Below are positions 33,284 to 43,389 of a DNA stretch of 64,000 nucleotides, in pieces. Numbering within the stretch: the stretch's first letter is position 1; each line of letters starts with the position of its first letter. The stretch comes from Actinomycetospora lutea. GTDB lineage: Bacteria; Actinomycetota; Actinomycetes; Mycobacteriales; Pseudonocardiaceae. The stretch is from assembly GCF_028737205.1 (NCBI RefSeq), contig NZ_JAQZAL010000008.1:62001-126000 (forward strand). Direction: 5' to 3'. A program made the position numbers and the translations under genes. Under the pieces are notes generated by a model. The model searched no databases. It was given only the letters and a program-made list of their open reading frames with translations, and had not been told where the DNA came from.

Positions 33284-33742
33284 ATGACGTCCACTGATCG
33301 ATCGGACGAACTGGCCGCCGCGGGCCTGGACGGCCAGAACAGGACGGCCCTCGGCCGGCTGCTCGGCACGGGCAGCATCGGGCACGCCGAGAAGGGGTCC
33401 GACGGCATCATGCGGGCCACGGTCCGCATCCCGGAGGACGAGCTGATCTGGGAGCCGTCGATCCTCGTGTTCCCCGAGGGCGGCGAGGTCGAGCTCACGC
33501 TCATCAACGACGACAAGAACACCCACTGTGCGGTGCTGCCGCACAACGGTGACCCCAAGATCATCTGGATGGTCAACCACTCCAAGGGCACGGCCCGGCT
33601 CTCGCTGTCGGGCCCCGGCACCTACTACTACGGCTCCACGACCGGCAACGACGAGGGCCGCGGCCTGACCGGCGCCCTCGTCTTCGGCGGCGAGGTCCCG
33701 GACTCCGCGAAGCAGGACCGTCCGCCGCAGCCGCGCCCGTAA
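33284..33742 (+). CDS. Cupredoxin-like protein without a full copper site
   Basis: This 152-residue protein has a C-terminal Greek-key cupredoxin pattern (about residues 45-136): VELTLINDDKNTHCAVLPH, then GTARLSLSGPGTYYYG and GLTGALVF. In a type 1 copper protein the last loop carries Cys, His and Met; by hand alignment these are Ser118, Asp123 and Leu128, leaving only His81 of the four ligands. There is no signal peptide or lipobox. GAGGAGG precedes the ATG. The PQQ dehydrogenase gene begins 36 bp downstream. Cupredoxins can accept electrons from PQQ dehydrogenases, but this one probably cannot bind copper in the usual way. Confidence 0.65.
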   Translation: MTSTDRSDELAAAGLDGQNRTALGRLLGTGSIGHAEKGSDGIMRATVRIPEDELIWEPSILVFPEGGEVELTLINDDKNTHCAVLPHNGDPKIIWMVNHSKGTARLSLSGPGTYYYGSTTGNDEGRGLTGALVFGGEVPDSAKQDRPPQPRP

Positions 33743-33778: not shown

Positions 33779-35470
33779 ATGACCGACTACGTGGACGCCG
33801 GCGAGGCCGTCCCGCACAAGACCCTCAGCGCCACCAAGGGCAGCGCCCCGGCGACCGGCAACGTCGACTTCGAGCGGATCAAGGCCGCGAAGTCGGAGCC
33901 GCAGAACTGGCTGACCTACTACGGCAGCTACGACGGCCAGCGGCACAGCCCGCTGGACCAGATCAACAAGGAGACGGTCAAGAGGCTCAGCCCGGCGTGG
34001 GTGTTCCAGGCCGGCATGAACGGCCTGCACTCCGGCGCCTCGACCTACTCGTTCGAGGCCTCCCCGCTCGTGGTCGAGGGCGTCATGTACGTCTCCGGCC
34101 CCGACGGCAAGGTCTGGGCGATCGACGCCGCTACCGGCGAGGAGCTGTGGCGCTACAAGTGGGCGTCGCCGTACGACGTCTCGCTGTGCTGCGGCAACGT
34201 CAACCGCGGCGTCGCGGTGGGCCACGGCAAGGTGTACATGTACACCCTCAACGCCCACCTCATCGCCCTCGACGCCCAGACCGGTGACCTCGTGTGGGAC
34301 ACCGTCAACGGTGACGTTCGGGCCGGCGAGAGCGGTTCGGTCGCGCCGCTGATCGTCAAGGACAAGGTCATCGTCGGCAGCGCGGGCGGCGAGTTCGGCC
34401 TCCGCGGCCACATCGACGCCTTCGACGCCCAGACCGGCGAGCGCCAGTGGCGCTGCTACACGGTGCCGAAGCCCGGCGAACCCGGGTCGGAGACGTGGGG
34501 CGACGAGAACGCCGAGGCGTGGCAGCGCGGTGGGGCCAACTGCTGGGTCACCCCGACCTACGACCCCGAACTCGAGCTGCTGTACCACGGCACCGGCAAC
34601 CCGGCGCCCGACTTCGACGGCGGCGTCCGCCCGGGCGACAACCTCTACACCGACAGCGTCGTCGCGGTGGACGTGAACACCGGGACCATCCAGTGGCACT
34701 ACCAGTTCACCCCGCACGACCTGTGGGACTACGACTCGACGATGGAGAACCTGCTCTTCGACGCTCCGGACGGGCGCAAGCTGCTCGCCCACGCGGACAA
34801 GAACGGCTACTTCTTCGTCCTCGACCGCACCAACGGCGAACTGGTGCGCGTCTTCCCCTTCGTCGACCGCATCACCTGGGGCGAGATCACGCCGGACGGC
34901 AAGGTCACGCCGAAGGTGTACCCGGACGAGGAGGGCGTCCCCGTCCACTTCTGGCCCGGCCCGGCCGGCGGCAAGGAGTGGACGCACATGTCCTACAACC
35001 CCAGCACGGGGTTGATCTACGTGCCCGTCCAGGAGGTCGGGGCGACGGCCACCCGCCGCCGCCGCGAGTTCCGGGAGAGCATCCCCTACTGGGGCGCCGG
35101 AGTGGCCGTCGACCTCGACGACTTCTACGGCTACGTCGCCGCCATCGACCCTGTCACGGGCGAGGAGAAGTGGCGCTGGAACAACGAGTACCCGATGTGC
35201 GCCTCGACGCTGACCACCGCGGGTGGCCTGGTGTTCCAGGGCACGCCGACCGGTGAGTTCGTCGCGCTCGACGCGGACACCGGCGAGAAGCTGTGGTCGT
35301 TCCAGTGCGGCAGCGGGCACCACTCGAGCCCGTCGACGTTCGAGGTCGACGGCCGCCAGTACATCGCCGTCCCCAGCGGGTGGGGCGGCTGGGTCGAGGG
35401 CTTCCTGCCCGGCCTGCTGGGCGCCGCCGCAGGTGACGCGCTGTTCTGCTTCGCGCTGCCCGAGAGCTAG
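33779..35470 (+). CDS. PQQ alcohol dehydrogenase, lanthanide type, no signal peptide
   Basis: This 563-residue eight-bladed quinoprotein dehydrogenase oxidises primary alcohols (methanol/ethanol class). W-motif repeats such as AIDAATGEELWRYK recur through the protein. The vicinal disulfide pair is C137-C138. Metal and PQQ residues are E205, N274 and D317, and D319 gives the W-D-Y-D motif that marks lanthanide-using XoxF/ExaF enzymes. No signal peptide is present: the frame has a TAA 11 codons before the ATG and no other start between. Relatives act in the periplasm, so a cytoplasmic or Tat-piggyback form is implied. No heme domain is seen. The acceptor is unknown; the cupredoxin-like neighbour is a candidate. 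Confidence 0.9.
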   Translation: MTDYVDAGEAVPHKTLSATKGSAPATGNVDFERIKAAKSEPQNWLTYYGSYDGQRHSPLDQINKETVKRLSPAWVFQAGMNGLHSGASTYSFEASPLVVEGVMYVSGPDGKVWAIDAATGEELWRYKWASPYDVSLCCGNVNRGVAVGHGKVYMYTLNAHLIALDAQTGDLVWDTVNGDVRAGESGSVAPLIVKDKVIVGSAGGEFGLRGHIDAFDAQTGERQWRCYTVPKPGEPGSETWGDENAEAWQRGGANCWVTPTYDPELELLYHGTGNPAPDFDGGVRPGDNLYTDSVVAVDVNTGTIQWHYQFTPHDLWDYDSTMENLLFDAPDGRKLLAHADKNGYFFVLDRTNGELVRVFPFVDRITWGEITPDGKVTPKVYPDEEGVPVHFWPGPAGGKEWTHMSYNPSTGLIYVPVQEVGATATRRRREFRESIPYWGAGVAVDLDDFYGYVAAIDPVTGEEKWRWNNEYPMCASTLTTAGGLVFQGTPTGEFVALDADTGEKLWSFQCGSGHHSSPSTFEVDGRQYIAVPSGWGGWVEGFLPGLLGAAAGDALFCFALPES

Positions 35471-35526: not shown

Positions 35527-35616
35527 ATGGAGCTCCACGTGTGGGAGGCCCCGGAGTTCGAGGAGATCGGGGTCGCTCCCGAGGTGACGATGTACGTCGC
35601 CCAGATGGACGACTGA
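35527..35616 (+). CDS. pqqA: PQQ precursor peptide PqqA, first copy
   Basis: This 29-residue ribosomal precursor supplies the Glu and Tyr that are joined to form PQQ. The essential E-x3-Y core is E19-V-T-M-Y23. The leader [14 protein letters not shown] resembles the W-x-x-P-x-F start of known PqqA, and the tail is AQMDD. AGGAGGGAG lies 8 bp before the ATG. It is followed after 16 bp by a strong hairpin. The peptide is nearly identical in its core to the second copy at 36779. It is shorter than most gene finders accept. Confidence 0.88.
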
Positions 35617-35632
35617 TCGACTGCTGACCGCG

Positions 35633-35664
35633 AAGGGGCGCCGGAGGAGTTCCGGCGCCCCTTT
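35633..35664 (+). terminator. Hairpin after pqqA1 (attenuator-like)
   Basis: Perfect 13-bp stem AAGGGGCGCCGGA / TCCGGCGCCCCTT with a 5-nt loop, starting 16 bp after the pqqA stop. In known pqq operons such a hairpin lets pqqA be made in excess over the downstream genes. The same design follows pqqA2. Confidence 0.7.
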
Positions 35665-35710
35665 CCGGCGTTTCGGTGCCCCTCTCCTCGGCAAACCGAC
35701 TGGAGATCCG

Positions 35711-35926
35711 ATGACCGTCGAGCAGACAGAGGCGCGGCCGGCGGCCAAGCGCTGGCTCTGCGAAATGTGTGGCTTCATCTATGATCCGGAGGAGGGTGAC
35801 CCCGACAGCGGCATCCCGCCCGGGACGCCCTTCGAGGACATCCCCGACGACTGGATGTGCCCGATCTGCGGCGCCGAGAAGGCGGATTTCCGCGAGGTGG
35901 AACCGGGCGAGTTCCCGGAGATGTGA
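35711..35926 (+). CDS. Rubredoxin
   Basis: This 71-residue one-electron carrier has a single iron bound by four cysteines: C17-x2-C20-G and C50-P-x-C53-G. The intervening [25 protein letters not shown] is the canonical rubredoxin core. GGAGAT precedes the ATG. It lies between the two pqqA genes and 13 bp upstream of the R2-like diiron protein, which it could reduce. Rubredoxins more usually pair with alkane hydroxylase or rubrerythrin-type enzymes, and neither is present here. Confidence 0.93.
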
Positions 35927-35939
35927 GGATGCTGCGTAC

Positions 35940-36704
35940 ATGATCACCGGGTACGGCCACTTCGCCCAGCTCGCGGAATCGCTGCAGTGGGACGAGACCA
36001 CCATCGACCTGAGCGCCGACATCGAGGCCTGGCCGCAGCTCGAGCAGGACGAGTACGACCAGGTGCTCGGCCTGCTCGCCGGCTTCTGCATCGGCGAGAC
36101 ATCGGTGGCCACGCACCTCACGTCGTTCCACGCGGCCGCGTCCACCGACGACAAGATGGCCGAGGTCTTCGCGGCCCAGGCCCGCGACGAGGCCCGCCAC
36201 GCCCGCTTCTTCGACCGGGTGGTGCGCGAGGTCGCCGGCGTGCCCGGGTCGAACATGACCGAGCGCGTCGAGGCCCTGCGCGACCGCGTCAGCCCCGCCC
36301 TGGTCGAGCTGTTCGAGGAGCGTCTGCCCGCGATCGCCGAGAGCGTCGCCGAGGACCACGAGAACCTCACCGCCGCGGTCGGGCTCTACCACATGATCCT
36401 CGAGGGCGTGGTGCTCACCGCGGGTCAGCACGCGCTGCTCCAGACGATCGAACAGTGCTCGGTGAAGCTTCCCGGGGTACACAAGGGAATGGAACTGGTG
36501 CTGCGCGACGAGCGCTGGCACATCGGGTTCGGCTCCCGCGTCATCCAGAGCGCGGACATCGTCGACGACGAGATGGAAGAACTGCTCACCCAGGGCGTCA
36601 AGGCCGCGTCCGCGTGGGGCGACCTGATCTCCCAGGACGACATCGCGAAGGTCGAGCACCTCCACCAGCGGCGTCTCAAGTCGGTCGGCATCAAATTCTG
36701 GTGA
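35940..36704 (+). CDS. R2-like ferritin-fold diiron protein
   Basis: This 254-residue helical protein has a complete dimetal-carboxylate site: E53 (GETSV), E84-x2-H87 (DEARH), E155 (MILEG) and E191-x2-H194 (DERWH). It is of the ribonucleotide-reductase-R2 / R2-like oxidase type. The residue at the R2 tyrosyl-radical place (four after H87) is F91, and the protein lacks the R2 C-terminal tail, so a role in nucleotide reduction is unlikely. TGAGGA lies ahead of ATG 35940; the frame is also open upstream over rubredoxin. Oxygen activation with electrons from the neighbouring rubredoxin is the simplest reading, but the substrate is unknown. Confidence 0.8.
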   Translation: MITGYGHFAQLAESLQWDETTIDLSADIEAWPQLEQDEYDQVLGLLAGFCIGETSVATHLTSFHAAASTDDKMAEVFAAQARDEARHARFFDRVVREVAGVPGSNMTERVEALRDRVSPALVELFEERLPAIAESVAEDHENLTAAVGLYHMILEGVVLTAGQHALLQTIEQCSVKLPGVHKGMELVLRDERWHIGFGSRVIQSADIVDDEMEELLTQGVKAASAWGDLISQDDIAKVEHLHQRRLKSVGIKFW

Positions 36705-36778
36705 TCTCGCACGCTGCCCGCGCGGCGTGTGGCAGGTACCGTTGATCGAGAAGTGATCGAGAGGAGGTGGCAGCAATC

Positions 36779-36871
36779 ATGGAGTCGCTCTCCATCTGGG
36801 AGACCCCGGAGTTCGAGGAGTTCGGTGTCGCCCCCGAGGTGACGATGTACGTCGCTCAGCTCGACGACTGA
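36779..36871 (+). CDS. pqqA: PQQ precursor peptide PqqA, second copy
   Basis: This 30-residue precursor has the core E20-V-T-M-Y24. From WE-x-PEFEE to the final DD it matches the first PqqA almost residue for residue, differing only at the N-terminus (MESLSI) and a few positions. GAGGAGGTGG lies 7 bp before the ATG, a very strong ribosome binding site. A long hairpin follows 9 bp after the stop, then pqqB. By position this is the copy belonging to the pqqBCDE operon. Confidence 0.9.
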   Translation: MESLSIWETPEFEEFGVAPEVTMYVAQLDD

Positions 36872-36964: not shown

Positions 36965-37903
36965 ATGTGGCTGCGGGTGCTCGGCGCCGGCGCGGGCGGC
37001 GGTTTCCCCCAGTGGAACTGCGGCTGCCCGGGGTGCCGCGCGGTCCGTGACGGCTCCCGGCCGGCCACGCCCCGCACGCAGTCGTCGATCGCCGTGAGCG
37101 CCGACCGGACCACGTGGTTCCTGGTCAACGCCTCCCCCGACCTGCGGGCCCAGATCGAGGCGTCACCGGTCCTGCGGCCGGGCGGCACGAAGCGCAGCGG
37201 AGCTGCCGCGCCGAAGGCCGGATACAGCGCGAAGCGCGACAGCCCGATCGCCGCCGTCCTGCTCACCGACGCCGAGCTCGACCACACGATGGGCCTGCTG
37301 CTGCTGCGCGAAGGTCCGGGCGTGGAGCTGCACGCCACCGAGGCGTCCCTGCAGACCCTGCGGGACGGCACGGGCTTCCTGTCCACCCTGGAGCGCTACA
37401 CGACGGTCACACCGCACACGGTCGTCCCCGGCGAGACCGTCGCGCTCGGCGAGGGCCTCACCTACACCGCGTTCGACGTCCCGACGGTGAAGAAGGCCCG
37501 GTTCGGGGTCACGGAGGACGTCGGTCGCGTGGTGGGCTACCGCTTCACCGACACCGCGACCGGCCGGAGCGCGGTGTACCTGCCCGGTGTCCAGGAGGTG
37601 ACGCCCGCCGTGCACGACGAGCTGGCCGCCGCCGACACCGTGCTGGTCGACGGCACGACGTGGACCGACGACGAGATGATCCGTCTCGGCCTCGCGTCGA
37701 AGACCGCCCGCGACATGGGCCACCTGGCCGTCGACGGGCCGGACGGGAGCCTCGCGGTCCTCGCCGGCCTCCCGGCCGAGCGCAAGATCTACGTCCACAT
37801 CAACAACACGAACCCGATGCTGCTCGAGGACTCCCCCGAGTACGCGACGGTCGCCGCCCGCGGGGTGGAGATCGCTCTCGACGGGCTCGAGGTGGAGGTC
37901 TGA
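36965..37903 (+). CDS. pqqB: PQQ biosynthesis protein PqqB
   Basis: This 312-residue metallo-beta-lactamase-fold protein is required for PQQ synthesis, proposed to hydroxylate the Glu-Tyr intermediate. The conserved start MWLRVLGAGAGGGFPQWNC, with the zinc cysteines in NCGCPGC, is distinctive. It is followed by RTQSSIAVS and LLTDAELDHTMGLL. IYVHINNTNPML near the C-terminus completes the family pattern. GAGGA precedes ATG 36965. pqqC begins 8 bp after its stop. Confidence 0.95.
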   Translation: MWLRVLGAGAGGGFPQWNCGCPGCRAVRDGSRPATPRTQSSIAVSADRTTWFLVNASPDLRAQIEASPVLRPGGTKRSGAAAPKAGYSAKRDSPIAAVLLTDAELDHTMGLLLLREGPGVELHATEASLQTLRDGTGFLSTLERYTTVTPHTVVPGETVALGEGLTYTAFDVPTVKKARFGVTEDVGRVVGYRFTDTATGRSAVYLPGVQEVTPAVHDELAAADTVLVDGTTWTDDEMIRLGLASKTARDMGHLAVDGPDGSLAVLAGLPAERKIYVHINNTNPMLLEDSPEYATVAARGVEIALDGLEVEV

Positions 37904-37911
37904 GGAGCGGC

Positions 37912-38646
37912 ATGACGGTCACCCACGCGACCAACGGCACGGGCACCGACGCGGGCCCCGGGACGGCGGTCGGCCCGGAGGCCCTGGTGGAGCGGCTGCG
38001 CTCCCAGGCCACGCGCTACCACAGCGAGCACGACTTCCACGTGCGCATGAACGCCGGCGAGCTCTCGCCGGAGCAGATCCGGGGCTGGGTGGCCAACCGC
38101 TTCTGCTACCAGGAGGCGATCCCGCGCAAGGACGCCGCGATCCTCGGCAACTGCCCGGACCGCGAGATCCGCAAGCGCTGGATCCGGCGGATCACCGACC
38201 ACGACGGCACCGACACCACCGAGGGCGGCATCGAGGCCTGGCTGCGGCTCGGCGAGGCCTGCGGCGTCCCCCGCGAGGAGATGGACGACGGGCGCCACAT
38301 CGTCCCGGGCGTGCGCTTCGCGGTCGACGCCTACGTGACCTTCGCGCGCACCCGGCCGTGGGTCGAGGCGGTCGCGTCGTCGCTCACCGAGCTGTTCGCG
38401 CCGGGGCTCATGGCCGAGCGCCTCGCCGCGTTCGAGAAGCACTACACGTGGATCGCCAAGGACGGGCTCGACTACTTCCGCAACCGGCTGCACCAGGCGC
38501 CGCGCGACTCCGAGCACGCGCTGGAGATCGTCCAGGAGCACTGCCGCACCGCGGAGGCACAGGACGCCGCGGTCGCCGCGCTCGCCTTCAAGAACGACGT
38601 GCTCTGGAGCATGATGGACGCCATCGACAAGGCGTATCCCTCGTGA
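37912..38646 (+). CDS. pqqC: Pyrroloquinoline-quinone synthase PqqC
   Basis: This cofactorless oxidase carries out the final ring closure and eight-electron oxidation to PQQ. It has 244 residues, all helical. Family landmarks are YHSEHDFHVRMNAGELS, GWVANRFCYQEAIPRKDAAIL and RRITDHDGTD, plus FALKN-like ALAFKNDVLW at the end. A 20-residue Gly/Thr-rich N-terminal extension precedes the domain. The stop overlaps the pqqD GTG start (GTGA), so the two are translationally coupled. Confidence 0.95.
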   Translation: MTVTHATNGTGTDAGPGTAVGPEALVERLRSQATRYHSEHDFHVRMNAGELSPEQIRGWVANRFCYQEAIPRKDAAILGNCPDREIRKRWIRRITDHDGTDTTEGGIEAWLRLGEACGVPREEMDDGRHIVPGVRFAVDAYVTFARTRPWVEAVASSLTELFAPGLMAERLAAFEKHYTWIAKDGLDYFRNRLHQAPRDSEHALEIVQEHCRTAEAQDAAVAALAFKNDVLWSMMDAIDKAYPS

Positions 38647-38924
38647 CCGACACCGTCCCGCGCACCGGGCGGCCCGCGCTCGCCCGGTTCGTCAAGACCC
38701 GCTACGACAAGGCGCGCGAGCGGCAGGTGCTGCTCGGGCCCGAGACGGTCGTCACGCTCAACCCGACCGGCGCCGACATCCTGGCCCTCTGCGACGGGCA
38801 GCGGACCGTCGGCGACATCGTGGACGAGCTCGGCCGCCGCTACGACCGCGTCGTCGACGACGAGGTGATCGCGTTCCTGGAGCGCCTCGCGTCCCGGCGC
38901 TGGGTGGTGATCACCGATGAGTGA
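38643..38924 (+). CDS. pqqD: PqqD peptide chaperone
   Basis: This 93-residue RiPP recognition element binds PqqA and presents it to PqqE. Landmarks are GRPALARFVKTRYDKARERQVLLGPE, LNPTGADILALCDG and VDELGRRY. GTG 38643 overlaps the pqqC stop. The 3' end overlaps the pqqE start by 8 bp, which fits the known PqqD-PqqE complex formation. With two PqqA peptides present, one PqqD must serve both. Confidence 0.93.
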   Translation: MTDTVPRTGRPALARFVKTRYDKARERQVLLGPETVVTLNPTGADILALCDGQRTVGDIVDELGRRYDRVVDDEVIAFLERLASRRWVVITDE

Positions 38925-40053
38925 GCAGGTCCTCGACGGCCCCCTCGGCGTGCTCGCCGAGCTGACCCACGCCTGCCCGTTGTCGTGCTCGTACTGCTCC
39001 AACCCGCTGGAGCTCACCAAGCGCTCCGCCGAGCTCTCGACCGACGAGTGGCGCCGCGTGCTCGACGAGGCCGCCGTCCTCGGCGTGCTGCAGAGCCACT
39101 TCTCCGGCGGCGAGCCGCTGCTGCGCCGCGACCTCGTCGACCTGGTGGGCCACGCGAGCGGGCTCGGGATGTACACCAACCTCGTGACCAGCGCGATCGG
39201 CCTGTCCCGGCCCCGCGCGGAGGCGCTGCGCGACGCCGGGCTCGATCACGTGCAGGTGAGCATCCAGGCCGACGAGCCGGTGCTCTCCGACCGCCTCGCC
39301 GGCATCTCCTCGTTCGAGAAGAAGATCGAGGCGGCCCGGCTGGTCAAGGAGCTGGGCTGGCCGCTGACCCTCAACGTGGTGCTGCACCGGCAGAACATCG
39401 ACCGGATCGCGGCGATCCTCGACTGGGTCGAGGAGCTGGAGGCCGACCGGGTCGAGCTCGCCAACACCCAGTACTACGGCTGGGCGCTGCGCAACCGCGA
39501 GGCCCTGCTGCCGAGCCGCGAGCAGCTCGAGCACGCGGAGACGGTCAGCCGCGCGGCCCGCGAGCGCCTGCGGGGGCGCACCGACGTCATCTACGTCATC
39601 CCGGACTACTACAGCCGCTACCCCAAGCCCTGCATGGGCGGGTGGGGCTCGCGCCAGCTCGTCGTCGGCCCCGAGGGCAACGCCTGGCCCTGCCTCTCGG
39701 CCCACGAGCTGCCGCTGCCCCGGGCCAACGTCCGCGAGCACGACCTGCCCTGGATCTGGCGCTCGTCGCCGCTGTTCTCCGCGTTCCGCGGCACCGACTG
39801 GATGCCCGACCCGTGCCGCAGCTGCGATCGCCGCGAGGTCGACCTCGGCGGGTGCCGCTGCCAGGCCTTCCAGCTCACCGGGGACATGAACCGGACCGAC
39901 CCGGTCTGCGTGCTCTCCCCCGACCGCTACCTCGTCGACGAGGCCGTGGCCGCGGCCAACGACCCCGCCGCCGCGCCGGCCGCGGGGTCCACGCGCGAGC
40001 CCGTGCTGGTCCCGATGCCCGAGGTCGCGGTCCGCCCGCACCGCGCGGACTGA
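38917..40053 (+). CDS. pqqE: PQQ radical-SAM enzyme PqqE
   Basis: This radical-SAM/SPASM enzyme makes the carbon-carbon bond between Glu and Tyr of PqqA. The cluster motif is C20-x3-C24-x2-C27 (ACPLSCSYC), with FSGGEPLLRRDL as the SAM-binding part. SPASM cysteines are seen in KPCMGGWG, WPCLSAHEL and CRSCDRREVDLGGCRCQ. It has 378 residues with a Pro/Ala-rich tail. It is coupled to pqqD by an 8-bp overlap. No PqqF/PqqG peptidase gene follows; the next gene is unrelated. Confidence 0.95.
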   Translation: MSEQVLDGPLGVLAELTHACPLSCSYCSNPLELTKRSAELSTDEWRRVLDEAAVLGVLQSHFSGGEPLLRRDLVDLVGHASGLGMYTNLVTSAIGLSRPRAEALRDAGLDHVQVSIQADEPVLSDRLAGISSFEKKIEAARLVKELGWPLTLNVVLHRQNIDRIAAILDWVEELEADRVELANTQYYGWALRNREALLPSREQLEHAETVSRAARERLRGRTDVIYVIPDYYSRYPKPCMGGWGSRQLVVGPEGNAWPCLSAHELPLPRANVREHDLPWIWRSSPLFSAFRGTDWMPDPCRSCDRREVDLGGCRCQAFQLTGDMNRTDPVCVLSPDRYLVDEAVAAANDPAAAPAAGSTREPVLVPMPEVAVRPHRAD

Positions 40054-40425: not shown

Positions 40426-40474
40426 CCATCGCCCTTCCTTGCGGACGGCGCCCGCGTGCAGTACTCAGGTCCCC

Positions 40475-41062
40475 GTGTCCGTGATCGCGATCACCTTCGT
40501 CGTCATCGCCCTGGCGGAGGTGGCGGACACCAGCGGTCTCGTGACGCTCGTCCTCGCGACGCGCTTCCCGGCCCGCTGGGTGCTCATCGGCGTCTTCGCC
40601 GGGATGCTCGTGCACGTCGGCATCGCCGTGGCGGCGGGGAGCCTCGTCGGTCTGCTCCCGGAGCGTCCCCTCGAGGCGATCCTCGCCGTCATGTTCCTCG
40701 TCGGCGCGGCCCTCACGCTCCGCGAGGGCCTGGAGGACGACGACGATGACGATGACGACGACGTGGAGCGGGAGGTCCCGCGGACCCGGTGGGCGGTGGC
40801 GGCGACGGCGTTCGGGATCACCGCGCTCTCCGAGCTCGCGGACCCCTCGCAGATCCTCACCGCGACCCTCACCGCGCAGTACGGCGACCCGCTGCTCGTC
40901 GGCATCGGGGCGCTCCTGGGCCTCTGGGCCGTGTCCGCCCTCGCGATCTACGGCGGCAACCGGCTGCGCCGGGTCGTGCCGGTGAAGTGGGTGGCCATCG
41001 TGGCGGCGTCGATCATGGTGGTGCTCGCCGTGATCAGCGCGGTCGAGGCGATCCGGGGCTGA
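40475..41062 (+). CDS. GDT1/UPF0016-family cation exchanger
   Basis: This 195-residue membrane protein has two homologous halves, each with the family's acidic motif in a modified form: ALAEVADTSGL and ALSELADPSQI (usual form E-x-G-D-K-S/T). Six helices are visible, with a cytosolic loop of nine consecutive Asp between the halves. GDT1 proteins exchange Mn2+ or Ca2+ for protons. I chose GTG 40475; TTG 40439 is also in frame. The next gene is a CaCA-type exchanger. Supply or control of the metal for the PQQ enzyme is a tempting but unproven role. Confidence 0.7.
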   Translation: MSVIAITFVVIALAEVADTSGLVTLVLATRFPARWVLIGVFAGMLVHVGIAVAAGSLVGLLPERPLEAILAVMFLVGAALTLREGLEDDDDDDDDDVEREVPRTRWAVAATAFGITALSELADPSQILTATLTAQYGDPLLVGIGALLGLWAVSALAIYGGNRLRRVVPVKWVAIVAASIMVVLAVISAVEAIRG

Positions 41063-41069
41063 CACCGCC

Positions 41070-42140
41070 GTGATCCCGATCGTCGAGTTCGTCCTCGGCG
41101 TCGCGGTGCTCGTCTACTGCGCCGAGAAGCTCATCGGCCACCTCGTCGGGGTGGCGAGCCGGTGGGCGGTCTCGCTGTTCCTCGTCGCGGTGGTGTTCAC
41201 CGGGATCGAGGTCGACGACCTGGCGTTCGGCCTGGCGCTCGGGCTCGAGGACCTCCACGAGGTCGCCCTCGGCACGGTCATCGGCACGACGATCGCCATG
41301 CCGGGGCTCGTGCTCGCCGTGGCCGCGCTCGTCGCGCCCACCGCCGTCGAGGTGCCCCGGGACTACCTCGGTCTCTACGCGGGCGCGCCGCTGGTGATGT
41401 ACGCGCTGGCGCTCACCGGGACGCTGACACCGGTCGCCGGCGTCGTGCTCCTGGTGCTCTTCGCCGCGTTCGTCGGGTGGATCGCGCTGCGCGAGTACGC
41501 GGCGCGGCGCCCGGTCTGGCGCGACGCCGCACTCTACGAGCAGATCGACCGGGTGACCCTCGGCGGCGGCGTCGCGTCGCGGCGGGGGCGCGCCGACCCG
41601 GTCGGTCCGCGCGGGGAGCCGCCGGCGGGCCACCGGATCGACGCGGGCTTCCTGCGGGCGCGCCGGCGCTCCCCCGCCGGGACCGTCGTGCTCGCCCTCC
41701 TCGCGCTGGCCGGGCTCGTCGTCGGCGCCGCGGTCGCCGGGGCGGGGACCGAGGGCGTCCTCGAGGAGTTCGCCGTCGAGGGGACGGTCTTCGGCGTCAC
41801 GATCGCGACGCTCGCCCTCTCGCTCGAGGACCTCCTGCTCACCGTCGAGCCCGCCCGCCGGGGCGCACCCGAGATCGGCGTGGCGAACGTCGTCGGCAGC
41901 GTGGTGTTCTCGGTGACCGGCAAGCTCGGGATCCTCCTGCTCGCCGGCGGCGCGATGGTGGTGACGCCCGAGGTCGTGCGCTGGCACCTGCCCGCGCTCG
42001 TGCTGATCACGGCGACGTCGGCGGTCTTCCTCGCCACCGGGCGGCTGCGCCGGCGCCACGGCGTCGTCCTGCTCGCGGCCTACGTCGCCTACTTCGTCGT
42101 CAGCCTAGTGTTCTTCGGCGGGGTCCCGGTCGGGGACTGA
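41070..42140 (+). CDS. CaCA-superfamily Na+(H+)/Ca2+ antiporter-like protein
   Basis: This 356-residue membrane protein has about ten helices and two inverted alpha repeats. The first reads GIEVDDLAFGLALG with VALGTVIGTTIAMPG. The second reads LALSLEDLLLTVEPARRGAPEIGVANVVGSVVFS. This is the layout of YrbG/NCX-type cation exchangers. A hydrophilic, Arg/Gly-rich loop of about 60 residues separates the halves. GTG 41070 lies 7 bp after the GDT1-like stop. A strong hairpin overlaps the 3' end. Confidence 0.8.
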   Translation: MIPIVEFVLGVAVLVYCAEKLIGHLVGVASRWAVSLFLVAVVFTGIEVDDLAFGLALGLEDLHEVALGTVIGTTIAMPGLVLAVAALVAPTAVEVPRDYLGLYAGAPLVMYALALTGTLTPVAGVVLLVLFAAFVGWIALREYAARRPVWRDAALYEQIDRVTLGGGVASRRGRADPVGPRGEPPAGHRIDAGFLRARRRSPAGTVVLALLALAGLVVGAAVAGAGTEGVLEEFAVEGTVFGVTIATLALSLEDLLLTVEPARRGAPEIGVANVVGSVVFSVTGKLGILLLAGGAMVVTPEVVRWHLPALVLITATSAVFLATGRLRRRHGVVLLAAYVAYFVVSLVFFGGVPVGD

Positions 42141-42174: not shown

Positions 42175-43389
42175 TCAGGCCGCGATCATCCCGTGCGGGT
42201 CGATGACGAACTTCTTCGCGACGCCCGAGTCGAACTGGGCGTAGCCCTGGGGCGCGTCGTCGAGGGAGATGACGGTCGCGTTGACCGCCTTCCCGATCTC
42301 CACCCGGTCCCGCAGGATCGCGTTCATCAGCTGCCGGTGGTAGCGCATGACCGGGCACTGGCCGGTCGTGAACGAGTGCGACTTCGCCCAGCCCAGGCCG
42401 ATGCGGATCGAGAGGCTGCCCTCCTTGGCGGCGTCGTCCGCGGCGCCCGGGTCCCCCGTCACGTAGAGGCCGGGGATGCCGAGCTTGCCGGCCGCCCGGG
42501 TGACCTCCATGATCGAGTTCAGAACGGTCGCCGGCTGCTCGTGGTCGGAGTCCTTGCCGTGGCCGCGTGCCTCGAAGCCGACCGCGTCGACCGCGGCGTC
42601 CACGACGGGCTCCCCGACGATCTGCTCGAGCTTCTCCGGGAGCGAGCCCTCCTCGGAGAGGTCGACGGTCTCGGTGCCGATGACCTCGCGCGCGTGGCGG
42701 AGCCGCTCGCCGTTCATGTCCCCGACGATCACCGCGGCGGCGCCCAGCAGCTTCGCCGACGCCGCGGCGGCCAGGCCGACGGGGCCGGCGCCCGCGATGT
42801 AGACCGTGGACCCGGTGGTCACGCCGGCGCTCACGCAGCCGTGGTAGCCGGTGGGGAAGATGTCCGACAGCATCGTCAGGTCGAGGATCTTCTCCATCGC
42901 CTGCTCGCGGTCGGGGAACTTCAGCAGGTTCCAGTCGGCGTAGGGGACCATGACGTACTCGGCCTGGCCGCCCTGCCACCCGCCCATGTCGACGTAGCCG
43001 TAGGCCGAGCCCGGGCGGTCGGGGTTGACGTTGAGGCAGACCCCGGTGTGCCCCTCCTTGCACATCCGGCAGCGCCCGCAGGCGATGTTGAACGGCGCGG
43101 AGACGAGGTCGCCCTGCGCGATGAACTCGACGTCGCGGCCGACCTCCACGACCTCGCCGGTGATCTCGTGGCCGAGGATCAGTCCGGGCGGGGCGGTGGT
43201 GCGTCCGCGGACCATGTGCTGATCGGAGCCGCAGATGTTGGTGGCGACCAGTTTCAGGACCACGCCGTGGGGACACTGGCGTCCCACGTTGGCCGGGTTG
43301 ACGCCCGGCCCGTCCTTGAGCTCCAGGCCCGGCTCCTCGATGTCCTGGATCTCGACCTTCATGGGTTCGATGTACGCGACGGCCTTCAT
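42175..43389 (-). CDS. fdhA: Glutathione-independent formaldehyde dehydrogenase
   Basis: This zinc-dependent medium-chain dehydrogenase has 404 residues, closest to the Pseudomonas putida FdhA type that oxidises formaldehyde with tightly bound NAD and no thiol cofactor. The start MKAVAYIEPMKVEIQDIE, NICGSDQHMVRGRT (catalytic Cys), LILGHEITGEV and the structural-zinc cysteines in ACGRCRMCKEGHTGVC are diagnostic. The Rossmann motif is YIAGAGPVGLAAA. The long C-terminal insert SLSIRIGLGWAKSHSF is also typical. It sits convergent to the PQQ island, where it would remove formaldehyde made from methanol. Confidence 0.9.
   Translation of the reverse strand: MKAVAYIEPMKVEIQDIEEPGLELKDGPGVNPANVGRQCPHGVVLKLVATNICGSDQHMVRGRTTAPPGLILGHEITGEVVEVGRDVEFIAQGDLVSAPFNIACGRCRMCKEGHTGVCLNVNPDRPGSAYGYVDMGGWQGGQAEYVMVPYADWNLLKFPDREQAMEKILDLTMLSDIFPTGYHGCVSAGVTTGSTVYIAGAGPVGLAAAASAKLLGAAAVIVGDMNGERLRHAREVIGTETVDLSEEGSLPEKLEQIVGEPVVDAAVDAVGFEARGHGKDSDHEQPATVLNSIMEVTRAAGKLGIPGLYVTGDPGAADDAAKEGSLSIRIGLGWAKSHSFTTGQCPVMRYHRQLMNAILRDRVEIGKAVNATVISLDDAPQGYAQFDSGVAKKFVIDPHGMIAA

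What the first reader, a model, noticed from the sequence alone, without database searches (positions are those of the whole stretch)
35527..36871. Two pqqA genes bracket a rubredoxin and an R2-like diiron protein
Standard pqq clusters carry one pqqA followed by pqqB-E. Here two nearly identical 29/30-residue precursors, both with the E-V-T-M-Y core, stand on either side of a rubredoxin and a protein with a complete E / E-x2-H / E / E-x2-H diiron site. I know of no role for either protein in PQQ formation. They could form an oxygenase pair acting on the precursor or on PQQ, remove peroxide made by PqqC, or serve the dehydrogenase. The pair sits inside the module rather than beside it.
Basis: partly seen in the sequence, partly recalled or inferred. 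Interest (0 to 1): 0.85.

Follow-up and report, generated by a model that had tools for sequence, protein, structure and literature searches.

The report
Rubredoxin-diiron pair tied to PQQ-alcohol dehydrogenase
In soil actinobacteria, a small iron-sulfur electron carrier and a two-metal, probably oxygen-activating protein sit in the same gene cluster as an unusual, apparently cytoplasmic, rare-earth-type alcohol dehydrogenase and the genes for its cofactor PQQ; they seem to work with the dehydrogenase rather than in making the cofactor.

Summary
Confirmed: pqqA1, rubredoxin, a 254-aa R2-type dimetal protein and pqqA2 lie in order at 35527-36871, between a PQQ dehydrogenase (ADH) and pqqBCDE. 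The link is real: of 30 related loci with 4 kb on both sides, 28 hold the ADH and its MSMEG_3727 partner and 24 pqqB/C/E; 20 stretches around distant homologues showed none. The pair is not generally needed to make PQQ: of 150 family genomes 100 have pqqE, 13 the diiron gene; all 13 are among the 40 with MSMEG_3727, none among the 61 with pqqE only. It tracks one ADH clade and stays with ADH and pqqA where pqqBCDE is unlinked (two genomes). The second pqqA is a lineage-specific duplicate. The protein is R2lox-like (ligands and both cross-link residues invariant) but has Leu/Phe for the R2lox tunnel alanine. The rubredoxin is the only one found in the genome. Best reading: a rubredoxin-fed small-substrate oxygenase paired with an apparently cytoplasmic, lanthanide-type PQQ-ADH. 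Substrate and electron transfer are inferred. New variant of a known kind.

The parts
33284..33742 (+). MSMEG_3727 family PQQ-associated protein, cupredoxin-like, no evident signal peptide
   Evidence: TIGR04339 253.5 bits, cut-off 75; PF23509; cupredoxin-fold matches of a low-confidence model
33779..35470 (+). PQQ-dependent alcohol dehydrogenase, lanthanide-type (D317/D319), no evident signal peptide
   Evidence: TIGR03075 626.9 bits, cut-off 480; best PDB chains 6zcv/6zcw, PedH by recall; N-termini of 32 relatives
35527..35616 (+). pqqA1, PQQ precursor peptide, 29 aa
   Evidence: TIGR02107 30.9 bits, cut-off 20
35711..35926 (+). rubredoxin, 71 aa
   Evidence: PF00301 86.1 bits; only PF00301 match in the genome
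35940..36704 (+). R2lox-like dimetal (diiron or Mn/Fe) protein, 254 aa
   Evidence: PF00268 62 bits; ligands conserved; Foldseek ranks 1-34 all R2lox
36779..36871 (+). pqqA2, PQQ precursor peptide, 30 aa, lineage-specific duplicate
   Evidence: TIGR02107 26.5 bits, cut-off 20
36965..37903 (+). pqqB
   Evidence: TIGR02108 375 bits, cut-off 245
37912..38646 (+). pqqC
   Evidence: TIGR02111 310.8 bits, cut-off 240
38643..38924 (+). pqqD
   Evidence: TIGR03859 75.2 bits, cut-off 46
38917..40053 (+). pqqE
   Evidence: TIGR02109 513.7 bits, cut-off 381
40439..41062 (+). GDT1-family cation/proton antiporter
   Evidence: PF01169 104 bits
41070..42140 (+). Na_Ca_ex-family cation antiporter
   Evidence: PF01699 90.9 bits

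Best explanation
The rubredoxin and the R2lox-like protein form a two-component, O2-activating module that serves a particular apparently cytoplasmic, lanthanide-type PQQ alcohol dehydrogenase (with MSMEG_3727), not the synthesis of PQQ. Shown by computation: gene order and spacing, conserved linkage, co-occurrence with one ADH clade, intact metal site, a single rubredoxin gene found in the genome. Inferred: the rubredoxin delivers electrons to the dimetal site; the site (Fe/Fe or Mn/Fe) activates O2 and hydroxylates a small substrate, giving an alcohol that the PQQ-ADH oxidises on; pqqA lies in the same unit so that cofactor and enzyme are made together. Confidence in the broad part (serves the ADH) about 0.65; in the hydroxylase mechanism as stated, 0.4.
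For: ADH and MSMEG_3727 in 28 of 30 diiron loci with 4 kb on both sides, pqqB/C/E in 24 of 30. Of 150 family genomes all 13 diiron genomes are among the 40 with MSMEG_3727 over cut-off, 0 among the 61 with pqqE but no MSMEG_3727. The 30 diiron-linked Pseudonocardiaceae ADHs form one clade (branch 0.34, SH-aLRT 100) that holds none of 20 diiron-less ADHs, with 10 sites that separate the 30 from the 20; on the pqqE tree the Saccharopolyspora locus L047 pairs with a diiron-less row (support 81, long branch). In L022 and L023 the diiron gene stays with ADH and the only pqqA found in the genome while pqqBCDE is on another contig. Rubredoxin within 400 bp upstream in 32 of 34 non-Solirubrobacterales loci with at least 300 bp upstream, and the only PF00301 match in the window's genome. 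Precedent: GkR2loxI lies among alcohol/aldehyde dehydrogenase genes and is reported as an alkane hydroxylase (PMC10867098).
Against: The association is one-way: 27 of 40 family genomes with MSMEG_3727 have no diiron gene, and in the phylum draw 10 of 11 genomes with MSMEG_3727 over cut-off have no match to the diiron profile at 1e-15, so the ADH system does without it. Seven Solirubrobacterales loci have no adjacent rubredoxin, so rubredoxin is not universal; L046, L054 (short contig) and L056 of these also show neither ADH nor pqq. L021 has pqqA and the diiron gene without rubredoxin, ADH or pqqB-E; L055 has pqqABCDE without an ADH in its stretch. The tunnel residue is Leu/Phe, so the long-chain substrates discussed for R2lox are unlikely. 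The alkane activity of GkR2loxI was in crude lysate and fell only slightly in the metal-ligand mutant. No rubredoxin reductase of the PF18113 type was found in the genome. The sampled genomes are related: by genus the association is 4 of 4 among 17 of 46 genera (p about 0.015).
Confidence: 0.4

Rival explanations
1. The pair modifies the precursor peptide or PQQ itself, for example an oxidation that gives a PQQ variant used by this ADH clade.
For: pqqA is beside the pair in Actinomycetospora, even in L021 with no other pqq gene or ADH near; in six of nine Actinomycetospora genomes the only pqqA found is the one just upstream of the pair; L055 and L053 have the diiron gene beside pqqABCDE.
Against: 88 of 100 pqqE-positive family genomes lack the gene; pqqB and pqqC are present in 24 of the 30 loci with full flanks as part of pqqB/C/E; PqqA cores are alike with and without the pair; in the Pseudonocardia loci pqqA is not next to the pair.
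Confidence: 0.15
2. A rubrerythrin-like peroxide or O2 scavenger that protects the module (that PqqC makes peroxide is recalled).
For: Rubredoxin plus a ferritin-like dimetal site is the layout of rubrerythrin peroxidases (recalled).
Against: Below the Pfam Rubrerythrin cut-off (21.6 against 22.8 bits); R2lox cross-link residues kept; most pqqE genomes of the family do without it.
Confidence: 0.15
3. A terminal oxidase route: electrons of the cytoplasmic ADH pass through MSMEG_3727 and rubredoxin to the dimetal protein, which reduces O2 to water.
For: The ADH and MSMEG_3727 lack evident signal peptides, so an extracytoplasmic cytochrome c is an unlikely acceptor; three redox genes lie side by side.
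Against: 27 of 40 MSMEG_3727 genomes have no diiron gene; Solirubrobacterales loci have no adjacent rubredoxin; the 18-row MSMEG_3727 alignment shows no Cys/His/Met copper loop at the usual place (the usual pattern is recalled).
Confidence: 0.12
4. A neighbour without functional link that hitch-hikes in the operon.
For: Most sampled carriers belong to related genera.
Against: Order is reshuffled but linkage kept between Actinomycetospora, Pseudonocardia, Saccharopolyspora and some Solirubrobacterales.
Confidence: 0.06

Closest known systems
R2-like ligand-binding oxidase (R2lox; M. tuberculosis 3ee4, G. kaustophilus GkR2loxI 4hr0, S. erythraea 7qbp)
   Same: Best fold matches (Foldseek ranks 1-34); six ligands; Val (E53+3) and Tyr (E155-5) of the ether cross-link conserved in all 42 and 44 rows that reach them; GkR2loxI also lies among dehydrogenase genes (PMC10867098).
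   Different: 254 aa, about 22% identity; 85.5 bits against a cut-off of 315 for the best R2lox model; the position of A171, Ala throughout R2lox per PMC6399176, is Leu 39 / Phe 5 of 44 here and Ala in 36 of 36 distinct distant homologues; the Y175 position is Gln in 43 of 44; rubredoxin partner and pqq linkage were not found in the papers searched.
AlkB-rubredoxin alkane hydroxylase with PQQ alcohol dehydrogenase (recalled)
   Same: Layout: rubredoxin, dimetal oxygenase, alcohol dehydrogenase.
   Different: The protein here is a predicted soluble R2-type protein, not a membrane AlkB; the substrate is unknown.
Mycobacterial pqq cluster MSMEG_3721-3727 (named in PMC6529628, passages)
   Same: Genes put down there to PQQ synthesis and PQQ-dependent ADH, with MSMEG_3727.
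   Different: Diiron and rubredoxin genes there were not checked here; in the family sample 27 of 40 MSMEG_3727 genomes lack the diiron gene.
PedH-type lanthanide alcohol dehydrogenase (6zcv/6zcw; PedH name recalled)
   Same: Best PDB match; both Asp of the lanthanide site aligned (their roles recalled).
   Different: No evident signal peptide in 32 of 32 ORFs read, so probably cytoplasmic.

Membership tests
R2lox | E / ExxH / E / ExxH metal ligands in the R2 fold | tested here: met
   all rows that reach the positions, 42-44 of 44; Foldseek
R2lox | Val and Tyr that form the ether cross-link | tested here: met
   V56 in 42 of 42 and Y150 in 44 of 44 rows that reach them, aligned with the Val and Tyr of GkR2loxI
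R2lox | Alanine at the A171 position lining the fatty-acid tunnel | tested here: not met
   Leu 39, Phe 5 of 44; the definition is from passages of PMC6399176
R2lox | Curated NCBIfam cut-offs for R2lox | tested here: not met
   85.5 against 315 and 82.5 against 194 bits
R2lox | Mn/Fe cofactor and bound fatty acid | not testable with these tools
   needs protein
Ribonucleotide reductase R2 | Curated RNR beta cut-offs | tested here: not met
   38 bits against 310 for the best RNR beta model
Rubrerythrin | Pfam Rubrerythrin cut-off, fused rubredoxin domain | tested here: not met
   21.6 against 22.8 bits; rubredoxin is a separate gene
Rubredoxin | Two CxxC knuckles, Pfam cut-off | tested here: met
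   86.1 bits over 47 of 47 positions; knuckles seen in the translation
PqqA | E-x3-Y core and curated cut-off | tested here: met
   both copies
Lanthanide-dependent PQQ-ADH | Extra Asp two residues after the catalytic Asp | tested here: met
   D317/D319 aligned with 6zcv; metal use itself not tested
Lanthanide-dependent PQQ-ADH | Periplasmic export | tested here: inconclusive
   N-termini read by eye show no signal peptide in 32 of 32 ORFs; no predictor was run

The most novel reading that the evidence does not exclude
A cytoplasmic rare-earth quinoprotein pathway in actinobacteria in which a rubredoxin-driven R2lox-type Mn/Fe or Fe/Fe oxygenase with a closed fatty-acid tunnel hydroxylates a small substrate and hands the alcohol to the PQQ-ADH; this would give an R2lox-type protein a defined partner, electron donor and pathway.
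Probability: 0.3. Interest if true: 0.85.

Novelty: new variant of a known kind. Interest (0 to 1): 0.62.

Why it matters
The physiological role of R2lox proteins is described as not yet identified in PMC6399176 (2019, passages); one later paper proposes alkane hydroxylation (PMC10867098, parts 1-3 of 4 read). Here a related clade comes with its own electron carrier and a defined genetic partner, so substrate and donor become testable. The apparently cytoplasmic lanthanide-type quinoprotein and the cation exporter genes beside it raise the question of how such cells handle rare-earth metals and PQQ inside the cell.

Tried and rejected
Role in making PQQ as such: rejected as the leading idea by the 88 of 100 pqqE genomes without the gene. 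Replacement of PqqB or PqqC: both are present in the window and in many of the loci. Ribonucleotide reductase subunit: far below cut-offs. Long-chain alkane or fatty-acid hydroxylase: weakened by the Leu/Phe at the tunnel position. Search for a PF18113-type rubredoxin reductase in the own genome: none, so the donor is unknown. MSMEG_3727 structure: low confidence (pLDDT 61), used only as a hint. Distant homologues (29-36% identity, up to five matches per genome): no pqq, ADH, rubredoxin or exporter in the 20 stretches fetched; several are short contigs, and divergent genes could be missed by tblastn with window proteins. Search of the order of G247 (39 genomes): two R2-like matches, in genomes without MSMEG_3727 over cut-off.

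Limits of sampling. The 44 named loci came from one pattern scan with the window protein, which favours near relatives; the 13 loci of the family draw may overlap with them and were not added to those counts (12 of the 13 have the rubredoxin). Alignment A1 holds the window and 25 of the 44 loci; the recount uses all 44. Twenty of the 27 MSMEG_3727 genomes without the diiron gene were fetched. A first count of 49 distant homologues held 13 duplicates; the figure used is 36. The paper search for PQQ, rubredoxin and gene cluster gave two listings that I did not open.

Full report
Observation. The window lies in an Actinomycetospora-like genome (nearest locus A. succinea, 95% identity in the diiron protein). 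The order on the + strand is MSMEG_3727 (33284-33742), PQQ-ADH (33779-35470), pqqA1, rubredoxin, diiron protein, pqqA2, pqqB, pqqC, pqqD, pqqE, an amphi-Trp protein, a GDT1-family and a Na_Ca_ex-family antiporter. Gaps from MSMEG_3727 to pqqB are 13-94 bp.

The dimetal protein. Pfam places it in the RNR small chain family (62 bits), NCBIfam nearest to R2lox but far below cut-off. A 26-row alignment keeps all six ligands and also V56 and Y150, which align with the Val and Tyr of the R2lox ether cross-link; the same holds in every one of the 44 named loci that reaches the position. The AlphaFold2 model (pLDDT 91.8) matches R2lox structures in ranks 1-34. One feature departs: the residue aligned with A171 of GkR2loxI is Leu in 39 and Phe in 5 of 44 loci, but Ala in 36 of 36 distinct distant homologues. 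PMC6399176 (passages) says this Ala is conserved in R2lox and that A171F excludes the fatty acid from the active site while the cross-link still forms. So this is an R2lox-like clade with a probably narrowed tunnel, not R2lox proper.

Rubredoxin. It ends 13 bp upstream of the diiron gene, and is the only rubredoxin found in the genome. Within 400 bp upstream of the diiron gene a rubredoxin is found in 32 of 34 loci outside Solirubrobacterales with at least 300 bp upstream (not in L021 and L040), and in 0 of 7 Solirubrobacterales loci. In alignment A1, 19 of 20 non-Solirubrobacterales rows carry I[KR]FW at or near the C-terminus (the 20th IKFF), none of the 6 others; it may be a docking tail (inference).

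Linkage. Of 44 named loci, 36 have ADH, MSMEG_3727 or pqqB/C/E in the fetched stretch; the other eight are L021, L029, L044, L046, L048, L049, L054, L056, several of them cut by contig ends. Of the 30 with at least 4 kb on both sides, 28 have ADH and MSMEG_3727 and 24 pqqB/C/E; the two without any are L021 and L056. Twenty stretches around distant homologues (29-36% identity) show none. In many Pseudonocardia loci the order is rubredoxin-diiron-MSMEG_3727-ADH-pqqA-B-C-D-E (in L032, L035 and L041 the pair follows pqqE); in Saccharopolyspora L047 it is MSMEG_3727-ADH-rubredoxin-diiron-pqqA-B-C-D-E.

Which partner? In one draw of 150 family genomes, pqqE is in 100, MSMEG_3727 over cut-off in 40 (one more below it), the diiron gene in 13. 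All 13 are in the 40; none in the 61 with pqqE but without MSMEG_3727 (hypergeometric 1.5e-6 over 101 genomes, but they are related; by genus 4 of 4 among 17 of 46, p 0.015). Twelve of 13 have pqqE; the 13th, G037, is a 730-contig assembly. The reverse does not hold: 27 of the 40 lack the diiron gene, and so do 10 of the 11 MSMEG_3727 genomes of the phylum draw of 396. It is an accessory of one branch of this system. On the ADH tree (52 rows) the 30 diiron-linked Pseudonocardiaceae rows form one clade on a branch of 0.34 (SH-aLRT 100); the label changes twice on the whole tree, shuffled mean 16.1. On the pqqE tree (35 rows) it changes three times, shuffled mean 7.4, and L047 joins a diiron-less row (support 81; that row has a long branch). 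Only 8 diiron-less pqqE rows were sampled, so the contrast is moderate. Ten ADH sites separate the 30 from the 20 diiron-less rows.

The second pqqA. Two copies flank the pair in 9 of the 44 named loci, all Actinomycetospora, and in the window. Of nine Actinomycetospora genomes searched, six have a single PqqA over cut-off, lying about 0.3 kb upstream of the diiron gene with the rubredoxin between; two have two and one has three. In L022 and L023 (G547, G548) pqqBCDE is on another contig with no PqqA near it. So the constant copy is pqqA1, and pqqA2 is a duplicate that other members of the genus do without.

Localisation. All 32 ADH ORFs read have a conserved MTDYVDAG-like start (TEYVDAG in two Solirubrobacterales) without signal sequence, and the 31 MSMEG_3727 proteins likewise (by eye, no predictor). 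D317 and D319 align with the two Asp of 6zcv (their roles recalled). This suggests a cytoplasmic lanthanide-type quinoprotein, so its electron acceptor is open.

Literature. No held paper contains pqqA with rubredoxin or R2lox with rubredoxin; PQQ with rubredoxin and gene cluster gave two listings, not opened; Actinomycetospora with PQQ gave two listings. MSMEG_3727 appears in one paper (passages). PMC10867098 was read in parts 1-3 of 4. The library holds open-licence papers only, so absence is not proof of novelty.

Verdict. A real, conserved, specific association whose chemistry is unknown. The pair most likely serves the dehydrogenase; the hydroxylase mechanism is an inference by analogy.

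Noticed in passing
window 40439-42140; loci L014-L057 and L137-L156: Cation antiporter/exporter genes of three Pfam families (Na_Ca_ex, GDT1, MntP) swap beside the ADH/MSMEG_3727/pqq cluster: 28 of 44 diiron loci, 14 of 20 diiron-less loci, 0 of 20 distant R2-like stretches. Candidate metal (lanthanide, Ca or Mn) handling for a cytoplasmic quinoprotein.
   Followed up: partly
L031, L034, L036, L037, L038, L039, L042, L043, L057: An S9/DPP-IV-like peptidase gene lies 0.1-4.4 kb upstream of the rubredoxin-diiron pair in nine Pseudonocardia loci (family from L037 only); it could be a leader-peptide protease for PqqA.
   Followed up: no
window 33284-33742: MSMEG_3727 looks cupredoxin-like but lacks the usual Cys/His/Met copper loop (pattern recalled); NTHC, H98 and GNDEGRG are invariant in 18 rows.
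   Followed up: partly
window 42175-43389 (-): Glutathione-independent formaldehyde dehydrogenase (TIGR02819) downstream of the cluster in the window and in seven other Actinomycetospora loci.
   Followed up: no
L150, L153, L155, L156: A different PqqA-like peptide (core E-A-[TS]-G-Y) lies 3-5 kb from MSMEG_3727 in diiron-less loci.
   Followed up: no
L046 7061-8780: Two R2-like genes in tandem without pqq or ADH in the fetched stretch of a Solirubrobacterales contig.
   Followed up: no
L021 7776-9921: A. callitridis holds a second unit with pqqA, diiron gene and Na_Ca_ex but no rubredoxin, ADH or pqqB-E in the stretch.
   Followed up: partly
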